DNA from: Candidatus Magnetocorallium paracelense
GTDB taxonomy: Bacteria; Nitrospirota; Thermodesulfovibrionia; Thermodesulfovibrionales; Magnetobacteriaceae
NCBI GenBank assembly: GCA_029001845.1
Contig: JAREWP010000095.1
Coordinates: 1 to 64,000 of the forward strand
Length of the DNA: 64,000 bases
Reading direction: 5' to 3'
Shown here: piece by piece, positions 17,689 to 49,649 of the stretch
Numbering within the stretch: position 1 is the first letter of the stretch
How the letters are laid out: every line of letters begins with the position of its first letter
Notes under the pieces: generated by a model
Told to the model about the DNA's origin: nothing
The model's database searches: none
What the model saw: only the letters and a program-made list of their open reading frames with translations
Made by a program: the position numbers and the translations under genes

Positions 17689-18312
17689 CTACAGAGTTTT
17701 TTTTGCCAACTCTAACATTTTATCTAAGAGTTCTTTTAAGTGCGGACATTTGTGATATGCAATTTTCGGATCCAGTTTTCCAAAAAGTTCTTTTCCATTT
17801 ACAACTTTTTTATATGACCGTCCCATACACTTAGAATAAAGACGCTCAAGTAAGCTTGATGGAGGCTCATTAAAATTTACCGCTTCAGGTTCTCTAATTT
17901 TTTTCGGAAAGACATTTCTAACAATAGAAGGGAAAATATCCGGTTGACTCAGGAGCCATGCTTCTACTTCATGGACTGCGAAAAATTGAAAAAATTTTGG
18001 ATGATCGACTTTATTTTCGATATCGTTCTTAGCCCATTCATAACGTTTGTTTAATCCTGATAGATGATTGGGATAAAAGGTCGGACCATATAAATCCAAT
18101 AATGAAATAACAGCAATAATTTTATCTGATTGCGGTCCGTTTAAGTGCATTTTTGCTTTCATGGGGACATCTTTTAGCAATTCAGCCCACCCCTCAAAGC
18201 GTACAGTTTTAATGCCGACAGGAGAATCTAATACCGGATCAAGCCATTTTTTGAGAAACTTAGGCAATGCCTTGTCTTCTGTATAGCCTTCTACGAAAAG
18301 AACAAACCTCAT
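17689..18312 (-). CDS. DUF4276-like TOPRIM protein, partner of the AAA ATPase
   Basis: A 207-residue protein resembling DUF4276, a family thought to have a TOPRIM-like nuclease fold. EGYTE at residues 8-12 (E8 the expected first acidic site), LLDLYG with D73, and HEVEAWLL with E115/E117 are the visible acidic motifs. It overlaps the upstream ATPase gene by 4 bp (ATGA), so the two are translationally coupled. ATPase-TOPRIM pairs (OLD/Gabija-like logic) are common in antiphage and conflict systems. Antiviral function here is inference. No neighbouring defence gene or integrase is visible. Confidence 0.75.
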   Translation of the reverse strand: MRFVLFVEGYTEDKALPKFLKKWLDPVLDSPVGIKTVRFEGWAELLKDVPMKAKMHLNGPQSDKIIAVISLLDLYGPTFYPNHLSGLNKRYEWAKNDIENKVDHPKFFQFFAVHEVEAWLLSQPDIFPSIVRNVFPKKIREPEAVNFNEPPSSLLERLYSKCMGRSYKKVVNGKELFGKLDPKIAYHKCPHLKELLDKMLELAKKTL

Positions 18313-19493
18313 CCCATTTGCTCCAATTCACCGGATTTAAAAAGAGACCCAAGTGAGTATTCCTTCAGCCAGTAGTCAAGTTCTTCCCCTTTTAATGTTT
18401 GTAATATAGTCTCACCATTTTCCCATTTTGCAACGGTCGTTGTGGGTTTAATACCTGAAAAAGCATCAAGAAATTGTGGAGAATGTGTTGTCAGAATGAC
18501 TTGAGATCTATTGGCTGCATCAACAGCATATTCTGCAACAAGAGGGAGCATTGATGGATGGAGACCTGTTTCAGGTTCATCTATTGCTAAGATCGGAGCA
18601 GGTGACGGGCTTGCCAGGACAGTTAATAAAAACAAAAATCGTAACGTTCCATCTGAAAGTTCAGCAGCCGATTGCTCTCGTTTCAATGATTTCCAGCGAA
18701 TTCGCATTTGAATTCTCTGGTCAGAGGCAGGTGGAAAAATCAACTCCTCAAAATCATCTCCAAATGCGGCCTGCATGGCGGAATTAATATCCTTTTTAAA
18801 TTCACGATCACTTGTATAAAGTGTGTGCATTACTGAAATAAGATTTTGTCCGTCAGGATCGACTCGCTTTTCCATTCGAGAAATAGCAGGTTGACGAACA
18901 GAGGCATCTTTATTGGTGTGAAGATCATGATAAACAGCTATTGAAGCCAATGCCCTTTGGAATGGTGGAATGAAGTGATTGTTAATAAACGGGCCCGATG
19001 CTATTGAAAGAAGACTCTCCTCGTCTGATATAAACTCTTCGGGAGTAGTAAAAGTGTGCTCTTTTTCATCAAAGATAACCGCAATTTTTGAAAATCGTTC
19101 CAGAAATTTAAATGGTTTTTTTTCAATTCTTCTCCTTAGCTTATGAGAGTTTGTCAAGAGTTCGTTTTCGACTTTATATGAACTCCCAACACCGAGACGA
19201 GCCAGTTCCAGCTCGTAATGTTCAGGGCCCAATTCCCCTCCCTCAGGCGTTGATTCAAGAACCAGTCTTATGGAGGTCGTTGCTCCATCCCAAACGATGG
19301 GGTCCATGCCGCCTAATGACTGAATGTACTTCCCCAGCCTGCCATGTGCAGACATTGAGATTAATTCCATAAAACGAAGCAAGTTTGATTTGCCTGTTCC
19401 ATTAGGGCCAATGATAACATTGAGGTCACCGGGAAGCCAGCTTGCCTTTCGCAGAGAACGAAAACCTTCAATGTCAAGTTTTTTTATTTTCAT
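18309..19493 (-). CDS. AAA (ABC/RecF-like) ATPase
   Basis: A 394-residue SMC/ABC-type AAA_21 ATPase. Walker A GPNGTGKS is at 29-36. The ABC-like signature LSDGTLRF lies near 273-280, Walker B LAIDEPETGLHP near 302-313 (D305, E306) and the switch His in TTHS at H337. Between Walker A and the signature is a long insert, as in OLD-family and defence ATPases. It should hydrolyse ATP and control the downstream TOPRIM-like partner. The ATG at 19493 lacks a strong ribosome-binding site. The gene is divergent from mnmA across a 354-bp spacer. Confidence 0.85.
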   Translation of the reverse strand: MKIKKLDIEGFRSLRKASWLPGDLNVIIGPNGTGKSNLLRFMELISMSAHGRLGKYIQSLGGMDPIVWDGATTSIRLVLESTPEGGELGPEHYELELARLGVGSSYKVENELLTNSHKLRRRIEKKPFKFLERFSKIAVIFDEKEHTFTTPEEFISDEESLLSIASGPFINNHFIPPFQRALASIAVYHDLHTNKDASVRQPAISRMEKRVDPDGQNLISVMHTLYTSDREFKKDINSAMQAAFGDDFEELIFPPASDQRIQMRIRWKSLKREQSAAELSDGTLRFLFLLTVLASPSPAPILAIDEPETGLHPSMLPLVAEYAVDAANRSQVILTTHSPQFLDAFSGIKPTTTVAKWENGETILQTLKGEELDYWLKEYSLGSLFKSGELEQMG

Positions 19494-38589: not shown

Positions 38590-39388
38590 TATTTAGCTGT
38601 CGAATCATTCCTGATTACTGTTACTACAGTCCAATACCTCCCGCTTTTAAGCCCATAGGTCTGAAAACTGTTAGAGTTTCACCTGAGAATGAAAATTTCT
38701 CCTGCCTTATCTGTTTTGTCAACAAGGCATCCGACTCTCCTTGTTTGTACTTCGATATTACAGAATACCGAAAAAAATATTTTAAAAATCAATCTGTCGT
38801 CTTTCGTAATTAATATCTGATTTAACTTGTATACCTGGACCAATTACAGTCAACACCTCTCCTTCCACAAGGTCAAGAATACTCAAGCCTCTCCAGTTTT
38901 TGCAAGAGTTTTCTAATTTTTTAGAATCACGCTTCACATTATTTTTTTCTTGACATCTAAACCATGTTCAATTATAATATAGACCATTCAACAAATAATC
39001 TTTCCGGCGCTTTTTTATTTATACTAACTATAGGGATAAAGTAAATTTACAAGACATTAATTCATTTTTTGATGTCATTTTTGAAAGATACTCTCCAATA
39101 CATAATGTGATAATATTGCTTATATATTTTTTGTGTTTTAAATATTTTTATGATTATTTGATTTGTCATAACATAGTCAATAACAGATTTTTAAGTTGGG
39201 AAATCCTATTTAAAACTTTTGCACTTTAATGCTACAGCAACTCTTTATATTAATCACTATTTAAGCAACAGGTTCTCTGTAAATAACAAAGTATCGCAGT
39301 AATAGTAAGTCTTAATACTTATAGATATATAAGTGGAAATACTTACTATGATTTTTTACCAAGAGGATCGCTTTTAATTTGTATCTTG
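38590..39388. other. Long AT-rich intergenic region
   Basis: About 800 bp with no supported gene. It contains an exact consensus promoter at 38950-38978 (separate entry) directed rightward, then about 400 bp of AT-rich sequence before the next start codon. This may be a long leader for the 39389 gene or a short RNA. I see no ribosome-binding-site-linked frame. Confidence 0.45.
38950..38978 (+). promoter_or_regulatory. Consensus sigma-70 promoter
   Basis: TTGACA (38950-38955) and TATAAT (38973-38978) with a 17-bp spacer, an exact match to the consensus. It points toward the 39389-44900 cluster, about 400 bp ahead of the first gene. Confidence 0.72.
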
Positions 39389-39943
39389 ATGTTTTTTTCA
39401 ACTACTCCATATAATTTTCTTCATGGCGACGGTGACTGGATTGTTATTTTTGTGCTTACCGCAACGACATTTCTTGTAAGCTACCTTCTTGGCAAACAGG
39501 GTAAGTGTCTTATAAATGAAAAGGCGCCTTATGGGATTATATCTATTGAATTGCCTTGGAACGAGAAGAGGGCGTTGGAAATTGTAGAATCCTGGAAGGA
39601 TGGCTTAATACCGGTTGCAAAAAAACAGGTGCTATGGGACTTTTTATTTTTGTTGCTATACCCGCTTACCCTTAGTATCGCCTGTGCATTGCTTGCAAGG
39701 TATTTTTCAGGAATGGCAGGTTTTCTCGGAGTAACGATCTCGTGGGCAGTATTGCTTGCGGCTCCCCTTGATGCAGTTGAAAATATCTCAATACTAAAAA
39801 TGCTTTCCGCTTCCATCAGAGCTCCCATTCCACAAATAGCATCCATTTCCGCGACTATTAAGTTTATTTTAGTGTTCATCGCTTTGGGGTATATTGTTAC
39901 AGCTCTGATTCATTGGATGATAAGTCAAATTATTATAAATTAG
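39389..39943 (+). CDS. Small membrane protein of unknown function
   Basis: A 184-residue protein I do not recognise. Hydrophobic segments lie at about 15-32, 85-107, 112-130 and 155-180, so four membrane spans are likely. Between the first two is a soluble segment with a paired pattern (IELPWNEKRALEIVESW). No catalytic motif is visible. The start is ATG 39389 or the TTG just before it. It precedes the large sensor-like gene by 176 bp and may belong to the same transcription unit. Confidence 0.7.
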   Translation: MFFSTTPYNFLHGDGDWIVIFVLTATTFLVSYLLGKQGKCLINEKAPYGIISIELPWNEKRALEIVESWKDGLIPVAKKQVLWDFLFLLLYPLTLSIACALLARYFSGMAGFLGVTISWAVLLAAPLDAVENISILKMLSASIRAPIPQIASISATIKFILVFIALGYIVTALIHWMISQIIIN

Positions 39944-40119
39944 AGGAATGTGAATGAGGAACAAGTAATTTCTAACTACTCAAGTCGAGTGAAGTGATTA
40001 AGAAGACAATGAACAAAATGAATGGAGATAATCGCATTATAATTTTTATATGTAAACTATCTGAAGAGTTACAAATTTTTTTGTTTCCGGCTTTACCTGA
40101 TTAGAATTGAAAGTAAAAC

Positions 40120-43100
40120 ATGGAACCTTTTGAAAAAGAAAGCAATACAATGTCAGTGACTGGAGTTATTCTCCTTTTGCTGACTCTGGGTAGTGTTTAT
40201 TTTGCACAATCAACCCTCAAGGTCTCCAGACCTGTGGAAACAAAACCTGTTGAACAGACTTTGGAAGGAGAGGAAAGAACCCGTGCGCGTTTATGGGAAG
40301 ACCCATTTGAGGCTGTGTACAGAGAGATAAAAGATAACCAAAATAAACCTCTTCATTTTACCGGCCAAATTACTTTACAAAAAAGAAGTGAAAATTGGGA
40401 AATTCTTGGTGTAATGGTTCCATCGGGCCCTTACTTTGAAAGTATGGAGATGAGACGCAGATATAGATACGCTGTATTGTCAGCTTTGAATGTAACCGAT
40501 TATGTTCCGCATAAATCTGAATTTATAGGGTATTTAATGCCTTATAAAAATAGAGCCCTGAGCAATACCAGCAGCAGTGACGGTTGTTGGGCCGATTATA
40601 ATCAAGCAAATAACAGGCAGTTGAAAATTCCAAAAGCAATTCCATATGAATGGTTTGCAAAAGCAAACACAGAGAATGAAAAAAGATTGCTTTTGTTATG
40701 GTTGCCTGAGGAATCATTTCAACTGAAACCTTTCATTAAATTAAACAGCATATTCTATAAAGCATTTAAAGGGACTAAAAACGCTTCCTTCACACTTCTC
40801 GGTCCTTTTAGTTCCGGTGTCTTGAAAGTTATGACAGAGGAACTTTCAAAGCTTTCGGAAAAGGAAGGGAGTGACAAGAAGATTCATAAATTGAAAGATT
40901 TTAAAAAATTCAATGTATTTTCACCTTCGGCTACTATAGATAACGATCAGCTTTATATCGATGAAAACGATACTGCTGATATAAGTCTTGACCTTTTATT
41001 TCAAGGGATATTCGGAAAGGAGAGTAGATTCATTCGAACGATTAACTCTAACTGTGTATTAGTCAATTTATTATTAGATGAACTTGGCAGGCGAATGAAG
41101 AAAGTATCGGATATTGTACTAATAACACAGAGTGACACCCAATACAGTCGCTCTCTTTTAGAATCTTTTAAAAGAGAATATGAATATAGAGTAAATAATG
41201 ATAAGGAGAATAGGAAAAAAGCTGAAGATAAGGGCATTTATGATGTGAGTTATATGCGTGGCATAGACGGCATTACAGTCAGTGGTGTCTCTGAGTACTA
41301 CACGAAGAAAGTTAAACAGCAGATAGAAAAAGACTCAGACAAAAAAAGTAATTACGGATTTCGTACCATAAGACCACCAATAGGAAACGGCCAATTCGAT
41401 TACCTGCGTCGCCTTGCAGATAAAATTCATATGATTAAAGGTGATACAAAGGCAATCGGAATATTGGGCAATGATGTATATGATAAGCTTCTAATACTTC
41501 AAGTATTAAAAAACAAGTTTCCAAAGGCGATATTTTTTACCACCGATCTGGATGCGCGCCTTACCCATCCGGATGTATACAGATGGACAAGGAATCTCCT
41601 TGTCGCTTCAAATTTTGGATTAGACCTGCATAATGATTTGCAGCATTATGTTCCGCCATTCAGAGATAATTATCAAACTTCTATATTCCTTGCTACTATT
41701 TTTGCTACAGATACAGAAAAGTATAATGATCGTATTGAGGAAATTAATAAAAACATTAGTAATATCATAAAAGGAAGAATTTTTGAAATTGGCAGGAATG
41801 GCGCTTATCCGCTAAAAATTGGAAACAACAGCAATGAAAAAAATGAATACAATATCCATCCTGAACACTCTGGCTATGAAATAGAAAGAACGAACATCTG
41901 GATATCTGTTTTATCAACCATCTCCGGTATCTTTATCATCATTATCTTATATCCTATCAGAAGGAATCTAAGACCTGCGGATAAAAAAGAAAAAGGTATT
42001 ATTTGGCTTTTTGTCATTCCGGGGATTTTAATATATGCTATAATTTTTTATGCCAATAATTCTAATAATCTTGGAGAGCCCTTATCTTTTACAGACGGTA
42101 TCAGTTTATGGCCGACAGTTATAATAAGAATTATTGCCATTACTTTTACAATGTATTTCTTAAAAAGAATTTATATTGATACGAGAGATAATGTCTTTAA
42201 CACAGACAAAGAGTTTTTTTTAGACGGAGACCCTGAAAATCCTGATACACATACAGGATTGAAGGAATTCAATAAATGGTTTTGGCTGCCAATAATTCTG
42301 TTTTTTGTCGTAATATTCACGCCAAACCTTTTTAAAGGTAATTACGTGATAAACGAACCGATATATCTTTTAGGGGTATCAGTCGTTTTGTTTTTTATTA
42401 TCCTCATAAAGGAATCTCCTGTTCTTCGGTATATTACAGTTCACAAATGGAGATTGCCGAATAAAGGAAATGGAAATAAATATTTTATTGAAGATATCTG
42501 GAGTGCATATTGTCAAAGAAGCTTTACTGCCAATATTTCTCTCCGTGTAGGCTTAATGCTGCTGGTATATTATATTTTCACAGCCACGATGTTTGCACTC
42601 TTTGGCAGCCCGAATATTCCATACAGAGGTGACGTTTCATTATGGATCGAGCGGTTTGTTTTAGCTTTAAATGTTGCGCTTTTTAATTTAATGCTTTTTT
42701 TCGTGATCGATGTTTTGCGGAGAAGTACAAGGATGGTGAATTTGATTGGTTATAATGATAGTGTGTGGCGAGATTCATCTATAATAAAGCTTAAAGCTGA
42801 AACTGAGCTGAAAAATACATTACTGGATAATAACTCATTAAATAAATGGTTTAAAATTAAACTGATAGCAGAGCATACGGAGCTTCTAAACCACCAGATA
42901 AAATATCCCGTTATTATCGTAGTTTTAATGATACTCGCAAGAAGCAATTACTTCGACAACTTCTATACCCCCTTATCTCTTCAAGTAGTGATATTAGCCT
43001 CACTTTTATTTCCTGTTATATTCACTTTTCATCTTTCTAATTCAGCGAACCGTATAAAAGAAAACATATTATACGCTCTGAATAATGAGTTGCCGGGAAT

Positions 43101-43284
43101 CGACTACAATAATGATTCTCAAAATGGTCTGACAGAACAAAAACAAAGTCTTATTAAAAACATAAAAGAGCTGAAGAAGGGCATATTTCTACCTACAATG
43201 CAGCAGCCTGTCATAAAGGCCCTGTTTCTTCTTGTAAGTGGTCTTGGTGTATATCTCTCTGAATATTTTATCTTTTTGTATTGA
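40120..43284 (+). CDS. 1054-residue sensor-like membrane protein (periplasmic-binding-like domain plus C-terminal membrane domain)
   Basis: A large protein with one N-terminal helix (about 12-30), an extracytoplasmic domain (about 50-585), and about ten membrane spans in the last 460 residues (near 592, 625, 662, 720, 746, 807, 842, 928, 952 and 1031). The outer domain has the rhythm of a type I periplasmic-binding fold: LLGPFSSGVLK, then FSPSATID, FIRTINSN, DIVLITQSD and IGILGNDVYDKLLIL resemble Peripla_BP_6/ANF-like receptors. The membrane domain matches nothing I know. Placement before a nucleotide cyclase suggests a ligand sensor. The start may also be ATG 40150. Function is inference. 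Confidence 0.78.
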   Translation: MEPFEKESNTMSVTGVILLLLTLGSVYFAQSTLKVSRPVETKPVEQTLEGEERTRARLWEDPFEAVYREIKDNQNKPLHFTGQITLQKRSENWEILGVMVPSGPYFESMEMRRRYRYAVLSALNVTDYVPHKSEFIGYLMPYKNRALSNTSSSDGCWADYNQANNRQLKIPKAIPYEWFAKANTENEKRLLLLWLPEESFQLKPFIKLNSIFYKAFKGTKNASFTLLGPFSSGVLKVMTEELSKLSEKEGSDKKIHKLKDFKKFNVFSPSATIDNDQLYIDENDTADISLDLLFQGIFGKESRFIRTINSNCVLVNLLLDELGRRMKKVSDIVLITQSDTQYSRSLLESFKREYEYRVNNDKENRKKAEDKGIYDVSYMRGIDGITVSGVSEYYTKKVKQQIEKDSDKKSNYGFRTIRPPIGNGQFDYLRRLADKIHMIKGDTKAIGILGNDVYDKLLILQVLKNKFPKAIFFTTDLDARLTHPDVYRWTRNLLVASNFGLDLHNDLQHYVPPFRDNYQTSIFLATIFATDTEKYNDRIEEINKNISNIIKGRIFEIGRNGAYPLKIGNNSNEKNEYNIHPEHSGYEIERTNIWISVLSTISGIFIIIILYPIRRNLRPADKKEKGIIWLFVIPGILIYAIIFYANNSNNLGEPLSFTDGISLWPTVIIRIIAITFTMYFLKRIYIDTRDNVFNTDKEFFLDGDPENPDTHTGLKEFNKWFWLPIILFFVVIFTPNLFKGNYVINEPIYLLGVSVVLFFIILIKESPVLRYITVHKWRLPNKGNGNKYFIEDIWSAYCQRSFTANISLRVGLMLLVYYIFTATMFALFGSPNIPYRGDVSLWIERFVLALNVALFNLMLFFVIDVLRRSTRMVNLIGYNDSVWRDSSIIKLKAETELKNTLLDNNSLNKWFKIKLIAEHTELLNHQIKYPVIIVVLMILARSNYFDNFYTPLSLQVVILASLLFPVIFTFHLSNSANRIKENILYALNNELPGIDYNNDSQNGLTEQKQSLIKNIKELKKGIFLPTMQQPVIKALFLLVSGLGVYLSEYFIFLY

Positions 43285-43478
43285 GGATATTACATAAATA
43301 ATTATGAAGGGTATATAGAAGTGAAACTTTGCTGAGATGTCTAACAAGATTTAGGAGAATTTTTGAGTTTTTAAGAAAGTATCAAGTATTTCCCATTTAG
43401 GTCAGCGTTTGTTTACCTGACCTAATAATTGGTTATACCTAACTGATTGAAATCCTGCTGCTAAAAGGAGTTTTGATT

Positions 43479-44900
43479 ATGGAACGAACACATGCATACA
43501 TAATGTTTTCCGATATTAAAGGTTTTAGTAAGCTTTCAGAAGATGAGCTGACGATCTTTGCAGAGGAAGTTTGGCCAAATGTATTGAAAATTTTTAGAGG
43601 TGTTCCGGATATTAAAATATTCAACACCTGGGGTGACGCCATATTCATGGTATTTGGTTCCTCCGGCGTGGCTAAGGAGATAATCGCCTTTCGCGATTAC
43701 TTTCGACATCAACATTTTGGTGATATTGGGCTTCCGCAATTATCAGTACGAATCGGGTGTCATTTTGGAGATTTTTTATCGAGAACGGACCCTCAAACAG
43801 GCGAATTTAGTGTTATCGGTACAAACATTACTACGACAGCACGAATTGAACCGGTAACAAGACCTAATGATATCTTTGTAACCAAAGAGTTTGTCGACGC
43901 CTTTGAAAACAGTAAAGATACTTCGAAACCGGATAATATCGAGTTTGATCTAATAGGCGATATCAAACTGGCAAAGAATTTCGGAGAACACCAGGTCTGT
44001 CTTATGAGGAGAAGTAGCGATGAAAAAAATATTATCGATAAAATCGTAAAACTTGATTTAAAAATTCAGCTTCCCGATGCCAAACCAATGGAAGAACGTC
44101 AGAAATCACAGCTTGATGCTTATAAAAGCCTGTCTCCACAAGATTTTAAGAAGATGATTGCTCAACAGAACGTCACAGATGACAATGCTGAATATGTATT
44201 AAAAGTGGCAAGTATATGTAAAAGCAAAGGCTTATATGATGAAGCAATCGTGTTAATCAAAAAGCTGGAGGAATACTCAATAGAAGATATTGGCATGAAT
44301 GTGTATCCTTACAGAAACAGGGTGGATATAAATAAAGTAAAAGCAAACGCCCTGAGCAAAATTGGAGAATATCAGGAAGCATCCGAAATTATTTATTCAT
44401 TATGGAAGTGTGGGGTTGAGGACAGTGATACTCTTAGTATGCTTGCAGCTCAGTATAAACGAAGTGCAATGTATGATGAGAATAATAAATTACAGGAAAC
44501 GTTTCACAGAGAGATGCTTGTCAGAGCCAGAGATTTATATATAGAGGCATTTCGCAGAAATATCGATGACTATTATCCTGCTATTAATGCTGTTTATTTA
44601 AACGTTATCTTGGGAGGCGATGACAGGGGAAAAGGGCGCAGGCTGGCTAATTACATAATCACTGCATGGAAAAAAGATTTTGGCTCTGACTGGTGGGTAA
44701 GTTCTACAATTGCAGAGGCGGAACTTATTAACGACGGTTTTGAGGAGTCTATAGAGTATTTCGATAAAGCACTTTTTGAATGCAAACCTGAAGTCTTCGA
44801 TGTGGCATCGACATTAGAACAAATTAAACTTTATAAATTCTACATTCCTGCAGAGCCACGTATTGACGATGTAATAAAGGTGCTTGTTGACTACATCTAA
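43479..44900 (+). CDS. Class III nucleotidyl cyclase fused to TPR (TPR-S-like) domain
   Basis: A 473-residue cytoplasmic protein starting at ATG 43479, with AAAAGGAG at 43463-43470. Residues 1-180 are a class III adenylate/guanylate cyclase domain: FSDIKGFS with metal Asp12, NTWGDAIFMVF with Asp53, and TARIEP with Arg122. The position of the usual transition-state Asn (four before Arg) is Thr118. Residues about 195-473 are helical repeats that look like the DUF4071/TPR-S family (VYLNVILGGDDRGKGRRLAN, SSTIAEAELINDG), which has been linked to bacterial conflict and nucleotide signalling systems. It is 194 bp downstream of the sensor-like gene. The cyclase call is firm, the TPR-S call is moderate. 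Confidence 0.85.
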   Translation: MERTHAYIMFSDIKGFSKLSEDELTIFAEEVWPNVLKIFRGVPDIKIFNTWGDAIFMVFGSSGVAKEIIAFRDYFRHQHFGDIGLPQLSVRIGCHFGDFLSRTDPQTGEFSVIGTNITTTARIEPVTRPNDIFVTKEFVDAFENSKDTSKPDNIEFDLIGDIKLAKNFGEHQVCLMRRSSDEKNIIDKIVKLDLKIQLPDAKPMEERQKSQLDAYKSLSPQDFKKMIAQQNVTDDNAEYVLKVASICKSKGLYDEAIVLIKKLEEYSIEDIGMNVYPYRNRVDINKVKANALSKIGEYQEASEIIYSLWKCGVEDSDTLSMLAAQYKRSAMYDENNKLQETFHREMLVRARDLYIEAFRRNIDDYYPAINAVYLNVILGGDDRGKGRRLANYIITAWKKDFGSDWWVSSTIAEAELINDGFEESIEYFDKALFECKPEVFDVASTLEQIKLYKFYIPAEPRIDDVIKVLVDYI

Positions 44901-47996: not shown

Positions 47997-49649
47997 ATGA
48001 GATTACCGATAGGCAGAAGCGATTTTAAGTCACTACGAGAGGATGGCCTCTATTATATCGATAAAAGCCTCTTCATAAAGGAGATTATCGAAGATAATGG
48101 AGATATAATTCTTTTGCCGAGACCCAGGAGGTTTGGAAAGAGTCTTAATCTGTCGATGTTAAAATATTTTTTTAACGATCCTGACTCTAAGGAGTTATTT
48201 AATGGCCTTAACATATATAGGGATGAGTTGTTTCATATTCATCAGGGGAGATACCCTGTCATCTTTTTGACTTTTAAAGATATCAATTTCAATAAGCTCG
48301 AGGATTCTTATGATCATATAAAGGGTCTGATTGTATCGGAGTACAACAGGCTCGATTATTTGTTAATGGATAATCTGAGAGATGATGAGAGAAAAAGCTT
48401 TATACGTATTAAAAATTCTGACGGAACGATACAGGATTATACAAAGTCGATTTTATTACTAACGAAACTTCTTTATGAACATCACAATCAAAAAGTAGTA
48501 TTATTGATAGATGAATATGATACCCCTGTCCACACTGCCTTTTCAGAGGGGTATTATGACGAAATGATACGGTTTTTGAGAAACGTTCTCTCTCCGGCTT
48601 TGAAGGACAATATTTATCTCTTTAAGGGTGTGTTAACCGGAATACTCAGAGTGGCGAGAGAATCCATTTTCAGCGGCTTAAATAATCTGGCGGTCTATAC
48701 AATATTATCAAAGAGGTACAATACCGCCTTTGGTTTTACAGATAAAGAGACGGAATGCATATTAGAGGATTTTAAGTTAGAGCATAAATTTGGTGATCTG
48801 TCAGAGTGGTATAACGGATATTTATTCGGAGGGGAGATTATCTATAACCCCTGGTCCGTACTGAATTATATTAATTATGGCTGTGAACGCAGGCCTTACT
48901 GGATTAATACTTCATCCAATGATTTGATTAAATATTTGATACGACACAGCACTGCTGCATTCAGGTATGAACTTGAAGTTTTGATTCATGGGAATTGTAT
49001 AAAAGCGAAAATCGATGAAAATGTAGCGTTCGAAGAATTAAGAGAAGATGAGAGCAATATATACGGCTTTTTATTGTTTAGCGGGTATTTAAAAGCGGAG
49101 TATGATAAGTCTGTTGGAAATGAAGCTGTTTATAACCTGACAATTCCGAATATAGAAGTACGGTTAATTTATGAAAGAAAGGTCTCGGAGTGGATAAACA
49201 GGGGATATGAAAGCAATAAACTGCAAGAAATGCTTAAGGCTCTGGTAACAGGGGAGATAAAAATCTTTGAGAGATACTTGCAGGATTTTGTGGTAAGCAC
49301 GCTTAGTTACTTTAACACTTCAAGAAATATAGAGGCTGTATATCAGGCCTTTATCCTCGGATTACTGGTAAACCTGAACACTCACCATGTTAAGTCAAAC
49401 AGGGAGAGTGGTTTCGGGAGGTATGACATCATGGCGATTCCTAAGGATAAAAGAGGTAAAGGCATTATAATGGAGCTGAAAACCATAGATGATTTTGAGG
49501 GAGAGAATAAAGAGAGCTCTCTAAACAAGGCCCTGAAGCAGATAGAGGATATGAGATATGAAGATGAGTTAAGAGATCAGGGGGTGAGAGATATTCTTAA
49601 ACTGGGAGTGACTTTTGACGGGAAAAGGGCTTGGGTCAAGCATGCTTAA
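47997..49649 (+). CDS. AAA-ATPase-like / PD-(D/E)XK nuclease protein
   Basis: A 550-residue member of the common pair PF09820 (AAA-ATPase-like) + PF08011 (PDDEXK_9). Residues 1-20 (LPIGRSDFKSLREDGLYYIDKS as joined motifs) are a typical start. PRRFGKSLNLSML at about 42-54 is the P-loop, and LLIDEYDTP at about 163-171 is Walker B. The C-terminal nuclease-like region has RYDIMAIPKD and IIMELKT, giving D...E-x-K. The function of this widespread family is unresolved, and a mobile or conflict role is often suspected. It is a single gene. Confidence 0.92.
   Translation: MRLPIGRSDFKSLREDGLYYIDKSLFIKEIIEDNGDIILLPRPRRFGKSLNLSMLKYFFNDPDSKELFNGLNIYRDELFHIHQGRYPVIFLTFKDINFNKLEDSYDHIKGLIVSEYNRLDYLLMDNLRDDERKSFIRIKNSDGTIQDYTKSILLLTKLLYEHHNQKVVLLIDEYDTPVHTAFSEGYYDEMIRFLRNVLSPALKDNIYLFKGVLTGILRVARESIFSGLNNLAVYTILSKRYNTAFGFTDKETECILEDFKLEHKFGDLSEWYNGYLFGGEIIYNPWSVLNYINYGCERRPYWINTSSNDLIKYLIRHSTAAFRYELEVLIHGNCIKAKIDENVAFEELREDESNIYGFLLFSGYLKAEYDKSVGNEAVYNLTIPNIEVRLIYERKVSEWINRGYESNKLQEMLKALVTGEIKIFERYLQDFVVSTLSYFNTSRNIEAVYQAFILGLLVNLNTHHVKSNRESGFGRYDIMAIPKDKRGKGIIMELKTIDDFEGENKESSLNKALKQIEDMRYEDELRDQGVRDILKLGVTFDGKRAWVKHA

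What the first reader, a model, noticed from the sequence alone, without database searches (positions are those of the whole stretch)
39389..44900. Possible undescribed signalling/defence cluster: small membrane protein, sensor-like protein and cyclase-TPR
Three consecutive plus-strand genes follow a perfect promoter. The sensor has a periplasmic-binding-like outer domain joined to about ten membrane helices. The last gene has a class III cyclase joined to a TPR-S-like domain, which occurs in nucleotide-signal conflict systems. Together they could convert an outside signal into a cyclic nucleotide with the TPR as effector or receptor. I do not recognise this arrangement.
Basis: inference. Interest (0 to 1): 0.75.

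Follow-up and report, generated by a model that had tools for sequence, protein, structure and literature searches.

The report
Defence-type cyclase–TPR-S, not three-gene system
One of the three genes encodes a predicted signal-making enzyme fused to an ASK1-like sensor domain, whose relatives in other bacteria sit beside known kinds of anti-virus genes, but the other two genes belong to unrelated families and the three are neighbours only here.

Summary
The three ORFs are real, but they do not form a conserved system. The 1054-aa membrane protein belongs to a large family with no Pfam or NCBIfam name. It was found in 85 of 396 genomes of the window's phylum, and none of 30 relatives examined has a cyclase-TPR or small-protein gene nearby. 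Its outer part is probably periplasmic-binding-like (profile score 41.1; 100 shuffles, maximum 25.2). The small 4-TM protein is elsewhere the neighbour of patatin phospholipases. The third gene is the interesting one: a class III nucleotide cyclase fused to a TPR-S domain that folds like the ASK1 central regulatory region (Z 20.1). Of seven full-length relatives, five have a TIR gene close by; in Cohnella it lies between two TIR genes, and in Priestia it is in a gene run with PycTM and RyR. I read it as the signal generator of an undescribed Pycsar/Thoeris-like defence family, here without its usual TIR neighbour. No known defence model (PADLOC) identifies it, and its base-selecting residues match neither adenylyl nor guanylyl cyclases nor published Pycsar cyclases. 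Catalysis, product and defence are untested. The window copy carries Thr where the catalytic Asn is expected.

The parts
43479..44024 (+). Class III nucleotide cyclase domain (residues 1-182) of the cyclase-TPR-S protein; metal Asp12 and Asp53, Arg122, base-site Asn49/Ser111, Thr118 where the catalytic Asn is expected
   Evidence: PF00211 E 2.1e-8; AF2 model matches Rv1900c 1ybt (Foldseek E 3.7e-8; Z 15.7); residues
44088..44897 (+). TPR-S region (residues 204-473), ASK1-central-region-like TPR solenoid
   Evidence: PF20308 E 2.4e-13 at residues 253-374; Z 20.1 to 5ulm over 253 residues
40120..43284 (+). 1054-aa membrane protein: N-terminal anchor, outer periplasmic-binding-like domain, about ten C-terminal TM segments; probably a separate gene
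   Evidence: No Pfam family; relatives in 85/396 phylum genomes; hydropathy
40783..41199 (+). Stretch of the outer domain (residues 222-360) aligned in register with Peripla_BP_6 proteins
   Evidence: hhalign score 41.1, prob 34%, P 4.2e-4; 100 column-shuffled profiles reach at most 25.2
39389..39943 (+). Small 4-TM membrane protein of a patatin-associated family; probably a separate gene
   Evidence: Relatives next to patatin genes in L093-L095 and L099
38950..38978 (+). Perfect sigma-70-type promoter match, about 410 bp upstream of the first gene
   Evidence: 12/12 match
43397..43425 (+). 9-bp perfect inverted repeat (TTAGGTCAG...CTGACCTAA) between sensor and cyclase genes; terminator or operator possible, no T run
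   Evidence: sequence, part of predicted fold

Best explanation
The 473-aa protein is a stand-alone nucleotide-signal generator. Its N-terminal class III cyclase domain would form a dimer and make a cyclic mononucleotide from an NTP. Its C-terminal ASK1-like TPR-S solenoid would sense an infection- or stress-derived ligand or partner and switch the cyclase. The cyclic nucleotide would then activate an effector; in relatives the likely effectors are the adjacent TIR (NAD-consuming) or PycTM (membrane) proteins. In this genome no effector is adjacent, so it would act on an unlinked effector (seven TIR matches lie on other contigs) or has lost its partner. The upstream sensor and small membrane protein are independently acquired or resident genes that happen to lie next to it. 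Shown: domains, predicted folds, homology and gene neighbourhoods. Inferred: catalysis, product, ligand, effector and role in defence.
For: Domains: PF00211 and PF20308. AF2 model (mean pLDDT 73.6): residues 1-180 match class III cyclases, residues 204-473 match the ASK1 central region at Z 20.1. Seven full-length relatives with one conserved architecture. Neighbours: Cohnella L086, ThsB_TIR 11 bp upstream and a TIR_2 gene overlapping the cyclase stop, type I restriction genes beyond; Priestia plasmid L081, closely spaced genes PycTM - two unknown - cyclase-TPR-S - RyR, then a TIR gene; Magnetococcales L087, FHA-GGDEF-TIR gene 69 bp downstream; L148, divergent ThsB_TIR; L149, convergent TIR-NTPase. 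TIR_2 matches number 26 in the six chromosomal genomes of about 27 Mb, so one within 5 kb is expected at roughly 1% of loci; 3 of 6 have one, and a fourth has a ThsB_TIR. A Caballeronia plasmid protein carries TPR-S and cyclase in the opposite order, also near a TIR gene. Both metal Asp and the Arg are kept in all eight.
Against: The window copy itself has no TIR, PycTM or RyR neighbour and no TIR_2 match on its 163-kb contig. Thr118 replaces the catalytic Asn, which is present in only four of eight members. L150 and L151 lack a recognisable TIR neighbour. PADLOC gives only a 22-residue E 0.011 PycC match for the window protein and none for the relatives tested. No experiment.
Confidence: 0.6

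Rival explanations
1. One reading: the membrane protein binds an outside ligand and passes the signal to the neighbouring cyclase-TPR-S, which makes a cyclic nucleotide; the three genes are one new pathway peculiar to this lineage.
For: Same strand, consecutive, all three absent or rare in the window's own family; outer domain is binding-protein-like; no TIR partner is present, so the sensor could have replaced it.
Against: No co-occurrence in 30 sensor, 7 cyclase-TPR-S and 4 small-protein loci; sensor absent from the Cohnella and Magnetococcales genomes and the Priestia plasmid; 176- and 194-bp gaps with an inverted repeat. The sensor family stands alone, several copies per genome, beside metabolic genes.
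Confidence: 0.15
2. The cyclase-TPR-S is an ordinary stress or metabolic cAMP/cGMP cyclase with a TPR regulator, unrelated to defence.
For: TPR-regulated class III cyclases are common; two relatives have plain metabolic neighbours or no recognisable partner (L150, L151); closest solved fold is a mycobacterial adenylyl cyclase.
Against: TIR or Pyc effectors near five of seven relatives, overlapping genes in Cohnella; base-site residues do not match adenylyl or guanylyl cyclases; patchy distribution across phyla.
Confidence: 0.2
3. The window copy is a degenerate, inactive remnant that only binds nucleotide: effector lost, catalytic Asn replaced. (This can be true together with the best explanation for the family.)
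For: Thr118 in place of Asn, Ser111 where all seven others have Asn; no effector near.
Against: Intact 473-residue frame with metal Asp, Arg and the NTWGD motif conserved; Asn is also replaced (His, Ile, Val) in three relatives, of which two have a TIR neighbour.
Confidence: 0.15

Closest known systems
Pycsar (PycC cyclase with PycTM/PycTIR effector), PMC11224242
   Same: Class III cyclase as signal maker; a PycTM effector gene in the same gene run in the Priestia relative; TIR genes near others
   Different: Cyclase fused to TPR-S; no significant PycC profile match; the neighbouring TIR genes scanned have no Pfam cyclic-nucleotide-binding domain; base-site residues Asn49/Asn111 (window Ser111) differ from the published PycC residues; no effector beside the window copy
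Thoeris (ThsB TIR with ThsA)
   Same: ThsB-type TIR genes directly beside two relatives (L086, L148)
   Different: No ThsA seen; the partner is a cyclase-TPR-S; the window has no TIR
TPR-S / ASK1 central regulatory region (PF20308, 5ulm)
   Same: Pfam match above cut-off and Z 20.1 over 253 residues
   Different: No kinase; N-terminal partner is a cyclase
Mycobacterial adenylyl cyclase Rv1900c (1ybt/1ybu)
   Same: Best fold match of the cyclase domain; also has Asn in the N-T-x-G-D motif
   Different: Rv1900c carries an alpha/beta-hydrolase, not TPR-S; its other base-site residue is Asp

Membership tests
Class III nucleotide cyclase | Cyclase domain with two metal-binding Asp | tested here: met
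   PF00211 E 2.1e-8; Asp12 and Asp53 align with solved cyclases, invariant in eight members
Class III nucleotide cyclase | Transition-state Asn and Arg | tested here: inconclusive
   Arg122 invariant; Asn is Thr118 in the window, Asn in four of eight members
Class III nucleotide cyclase | Cyclic nucleotide product | not testable with these tools
   needs enzymology
Pycsar | Cyclase matches a PycC family | tested here: not met
   PADLOC PycC E 0.011 over 22 residues only; no match for three relatives
Pycsar | PycTM or PycTIR effector beside the cyclase | tested here: not met
   None in the window neighbourhood; met in the Priestia relative
Pycsar | Pyrimidine cyclic nucleotide as messenger | not testable with these tools
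   base-site residues match no published PycC set
Thoeris | ThsB TIR together with ThsA | tested here: not met
   No TIR_2 on the window contig; relatives have TIR, but no ThsA was recognised
TPR-S domain proteins | PF20308 above gathering score | tested here: met
   51 bits against 27.6
Type I periplasmic-binding fold (sensor outer domain) | Profile similarity to Peripla_BP_6 | tested here: met
   Score 41.1, shuffles at most 25.2, but HH probability only 34% and no Pfam match
Type I periplasmic-binding fold (sensor outer domain) | Two-lobed fold in a structural model | tested here: inconclusive
   Single-sequence model unusable, pLDDT 32

The most novel reading that the evidence does not exclude
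Cyclase-TPR-S with TIR (or PycTM/RyR) genes is a distinct, undescribed class of anti-phage system. An ASK1-like TPR-S sensor is wired in cis to a cyclase of new base specificity, feeding TIR or membrane effectors. The window carries a version whose effector is unlinked or replaced by a membrane sensor.
Probability: 0.35. Interest if true: 0.7.

Novelty: new variant of a known kind. Interest (0 to 1): 0.5.

Why it matters
If the reading holds, it adds a cyclase family in which the sensing and messenger-making steps are in one protein, with a regulatory domain shared with animal ASK1 kinase, and with unusual base-site residues that may mean a new messenger specificity. It is a small set of proteins that can be tested directly. 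It also points to two unannotated membrane families: a multi-copy binding-protein-like receptor and a patatin partner.

Tried and rejected
Single-sequence AF2 of the sensor's outer domain: pLDDT 32, discarded; its relatives came from whole-genome searches and are not on the structure tool's list of accepted sources, so no aligned job was sent. Profile of 30 sensors against PDB and Pfam: nothing meaningful. Viral contigs: no relative of cyclase-TPR-S or sensor; phage records: no relative of cyclase-TPR-S. Plasmids: the sensor had only one weak partial match. Rfam in the region: none. Synteny of the M23 and ChaN flanks to show an empty insertion site: the flanks are not syntenic in the family genomes examined, so no empty site could be read. 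Conserved neighbours of the sensor (SelO-, esterase-, NnrS-, DnaE-like) judged plain chromosomal synteny. L151's neighbour looked TIR/DRHyd-like by eye but had no Pfam match, so it was not counted. Papers: no held paper describing this cyclase-TPR-S/TIR module was found; Burroughs and Aravind 2020, the likely source for TPR-S, is not held.

Full report
Observation. The three ORFs exist on the plus strand at 39389-39943 (184 aa), 40120-43284 (1054 aa) and 43479-44900 (473 aa). The 'perfect promoter' is real (TTGACA-17-TATAAT, 38950-38978, 12/12) but lies about 410 bp before the first gene. The intergenic gaps are 176 and 194 bp, and the second holds a perfect 9-bp inverted repeat without a T run. 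The predicted RNA fold of that gap is only mildly better than shuffles (z -1.3). One transcript is therefore not shown.

Gene 3, cyclase-TPR-S. Pfam gives Guanylate_cyc (E 2.1e-8) and TPR-S (E 2.4e-13), both above cut-off. A model built with two relatives (mean pLDDT 73.6) has two parts. Residues 1-180 match class III cyclases, best by Foldseek Rv1900c 1ybt (E 3.7e-8). Residues 204-473 match the central regulatory region of human ASK1 (5ulm, Z 20.1, 253 residues, rmsd 3.6). The next unrelated helical-repeat matches score about 15, so ASK1 stands clearly above them.

Relatives of gene 3. Seven full-length relatives were found: a Priestia aryabhattai plasmid (35% over 98%), Cohnella lubricantis and a Magnetococcales MAG, and four genomes drawn from the phylum of that MAG. 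Only one of 399 genomes of Cohnella's class has it, Cohnella itself, and no full-length relative appeared in 396 genomes of the window's phylum other than the window. The family is rare and scattered, as expected of horizontally moved genes.

Neighbours of the relatives. Cohnella (L086): type I restriction genes, a ThsB_TIR gene ending 11 bp before the cyclase, and a TIR_2 gene overlapping the cyclase stop. Priestia (L081): PycTM, two unknown genes, the cyclase and a RyR gene close together on one strand, with a TIR gene 1.7 kb on. Magnetococcales (L087): FHA-GGDEF-TIR gene 69 bp downstream. L148: divergent ThsB_TIR. L149: convergent TIR-NTPase. L150 and L151: no TIR recognised, and L151 is close to a contig end. 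The six chromosomal genomes hold 26 TIR_2 matches in about 27 Mb, roughly 1% per 10-kb stretch. Finding one beside 3 of 6 loci, and a ThsB_TIR beside a fourth, is very unlikely by chance (my estimate, order 1e-5). A Caballeronia plasmid has the same two domains in inverse order near a TIR gene.

Active site. All eight proteins keep both metal Asp, Arg122 and the motif N-T-W-G-D. At the base-selecting sites they have Asn49 (all eight) and Asn111 (Ser in the window). Adenylyl cyclases usually have Lys and Asp/Thr, and guanylyl cyclases Glu and Cys (established knowledge). The published PycC base residues are different again (PMC11224242). Rv1900c shares the first Asn. The catalytic Asn is Thr118 in the window and Asn in four of eight, so activity of the window copy is open.

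Gene 2, the sensor. It has no Pfam or NCBIfam match. Relatives (25-35% identity) occur in 85 of 396 genomes of the phylum, concentrated in two families and often several per genome, but not in the 18 other genomes of the window's own family. Around 30 of them the recurrent neighbours are SelO-, esterase-, NnrS- and DnaE-like genes (identities read from sequence), never the other two window genes. Profile comparison with nine Peripla_BP_6 proteins of the same genome aligns the family's 'LGP..SG', 'YSPWATA', 'IGSD' and 'IALI.EWDTLYGR.LP..F' motifs in register (score 41.1, P 4.2e-4, probability 34%). One hundred column-shuffled profiles reach at most 25.2, the reversed profile 18.7 and an unrelated M23 profile 18.1. 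The type I periplasmic-binding reading is therefore likely but not proved.

Gene 1, the small protein. Relatives are few: three genomes of the phylum and a Nostoc plasmid. In all four places a patatin-like phospholipase gene lies directly upstream or one gene away. In the window no patatin is adjacent. This links it to phospholipases, not to cyclases.

Conclusion. The three genes belong to three families with different partners elsewhere, and are together only here. Best mechanism for gene 3: TPR-S senses, cyclase signals, a TIR or membrane effector acts; here the effector is unlinked or missing. It works like Pycsar or Thoeris but is not filed as a member of either, because defining features were tested and not met. 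The name of the window's phylum was not tested; Nitrospirota is a guess.

Noticed in passing
window 39389-39943; L093:6750-7313, L094:6584-7129, L095:6395-6739, L099:5959-6516: Unnamed 4-TM family found next to patatin-like phospholipase genes; the phospholipase may need it as a membrane partner or inhibitor.
   Followed up: partly
L031:8449-9789 (own genome, contig C38): Second TPR-S protein with MAP3K_TRAF_bd (E 9e-50), preceded by a 156-aa protein that looks Cache-like.
   Followed up: partly
L083:7783-9549 (Caballeronia plasmid): TPR-S and cyclase fused in the opposite order, in a neighbourhood with a TIR gene: an independent pairing of the same domains.
   Followed up: partly
L082:9001-10074 (Rhizobium plasmid): Related cyclase domain fused to a NUDIX domain.
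   Followed up: no
window 40120-43284 and loci L019-L050: Large multi-copy receptor-like family with no family name in Pfam or NCBIfam.
   Followed up: partly
window 38950-39388: Perfect sigma-70-type promoter match followed by about 400 bp of AT-rich sequence without an evident gene or Rfam match.
   Followed up: partly
window 17689-19493: Minus-strand pair that looks like an AAA ATPase and a DUF4276/TOPRIM-like protein, a type seen in defence modules (by eye).
   Followed up: no
window 47997-49649: 550-aa protein that looks like the AAA-ATPase/PD-(D/E)XK family (by eye).
   Followed up: no
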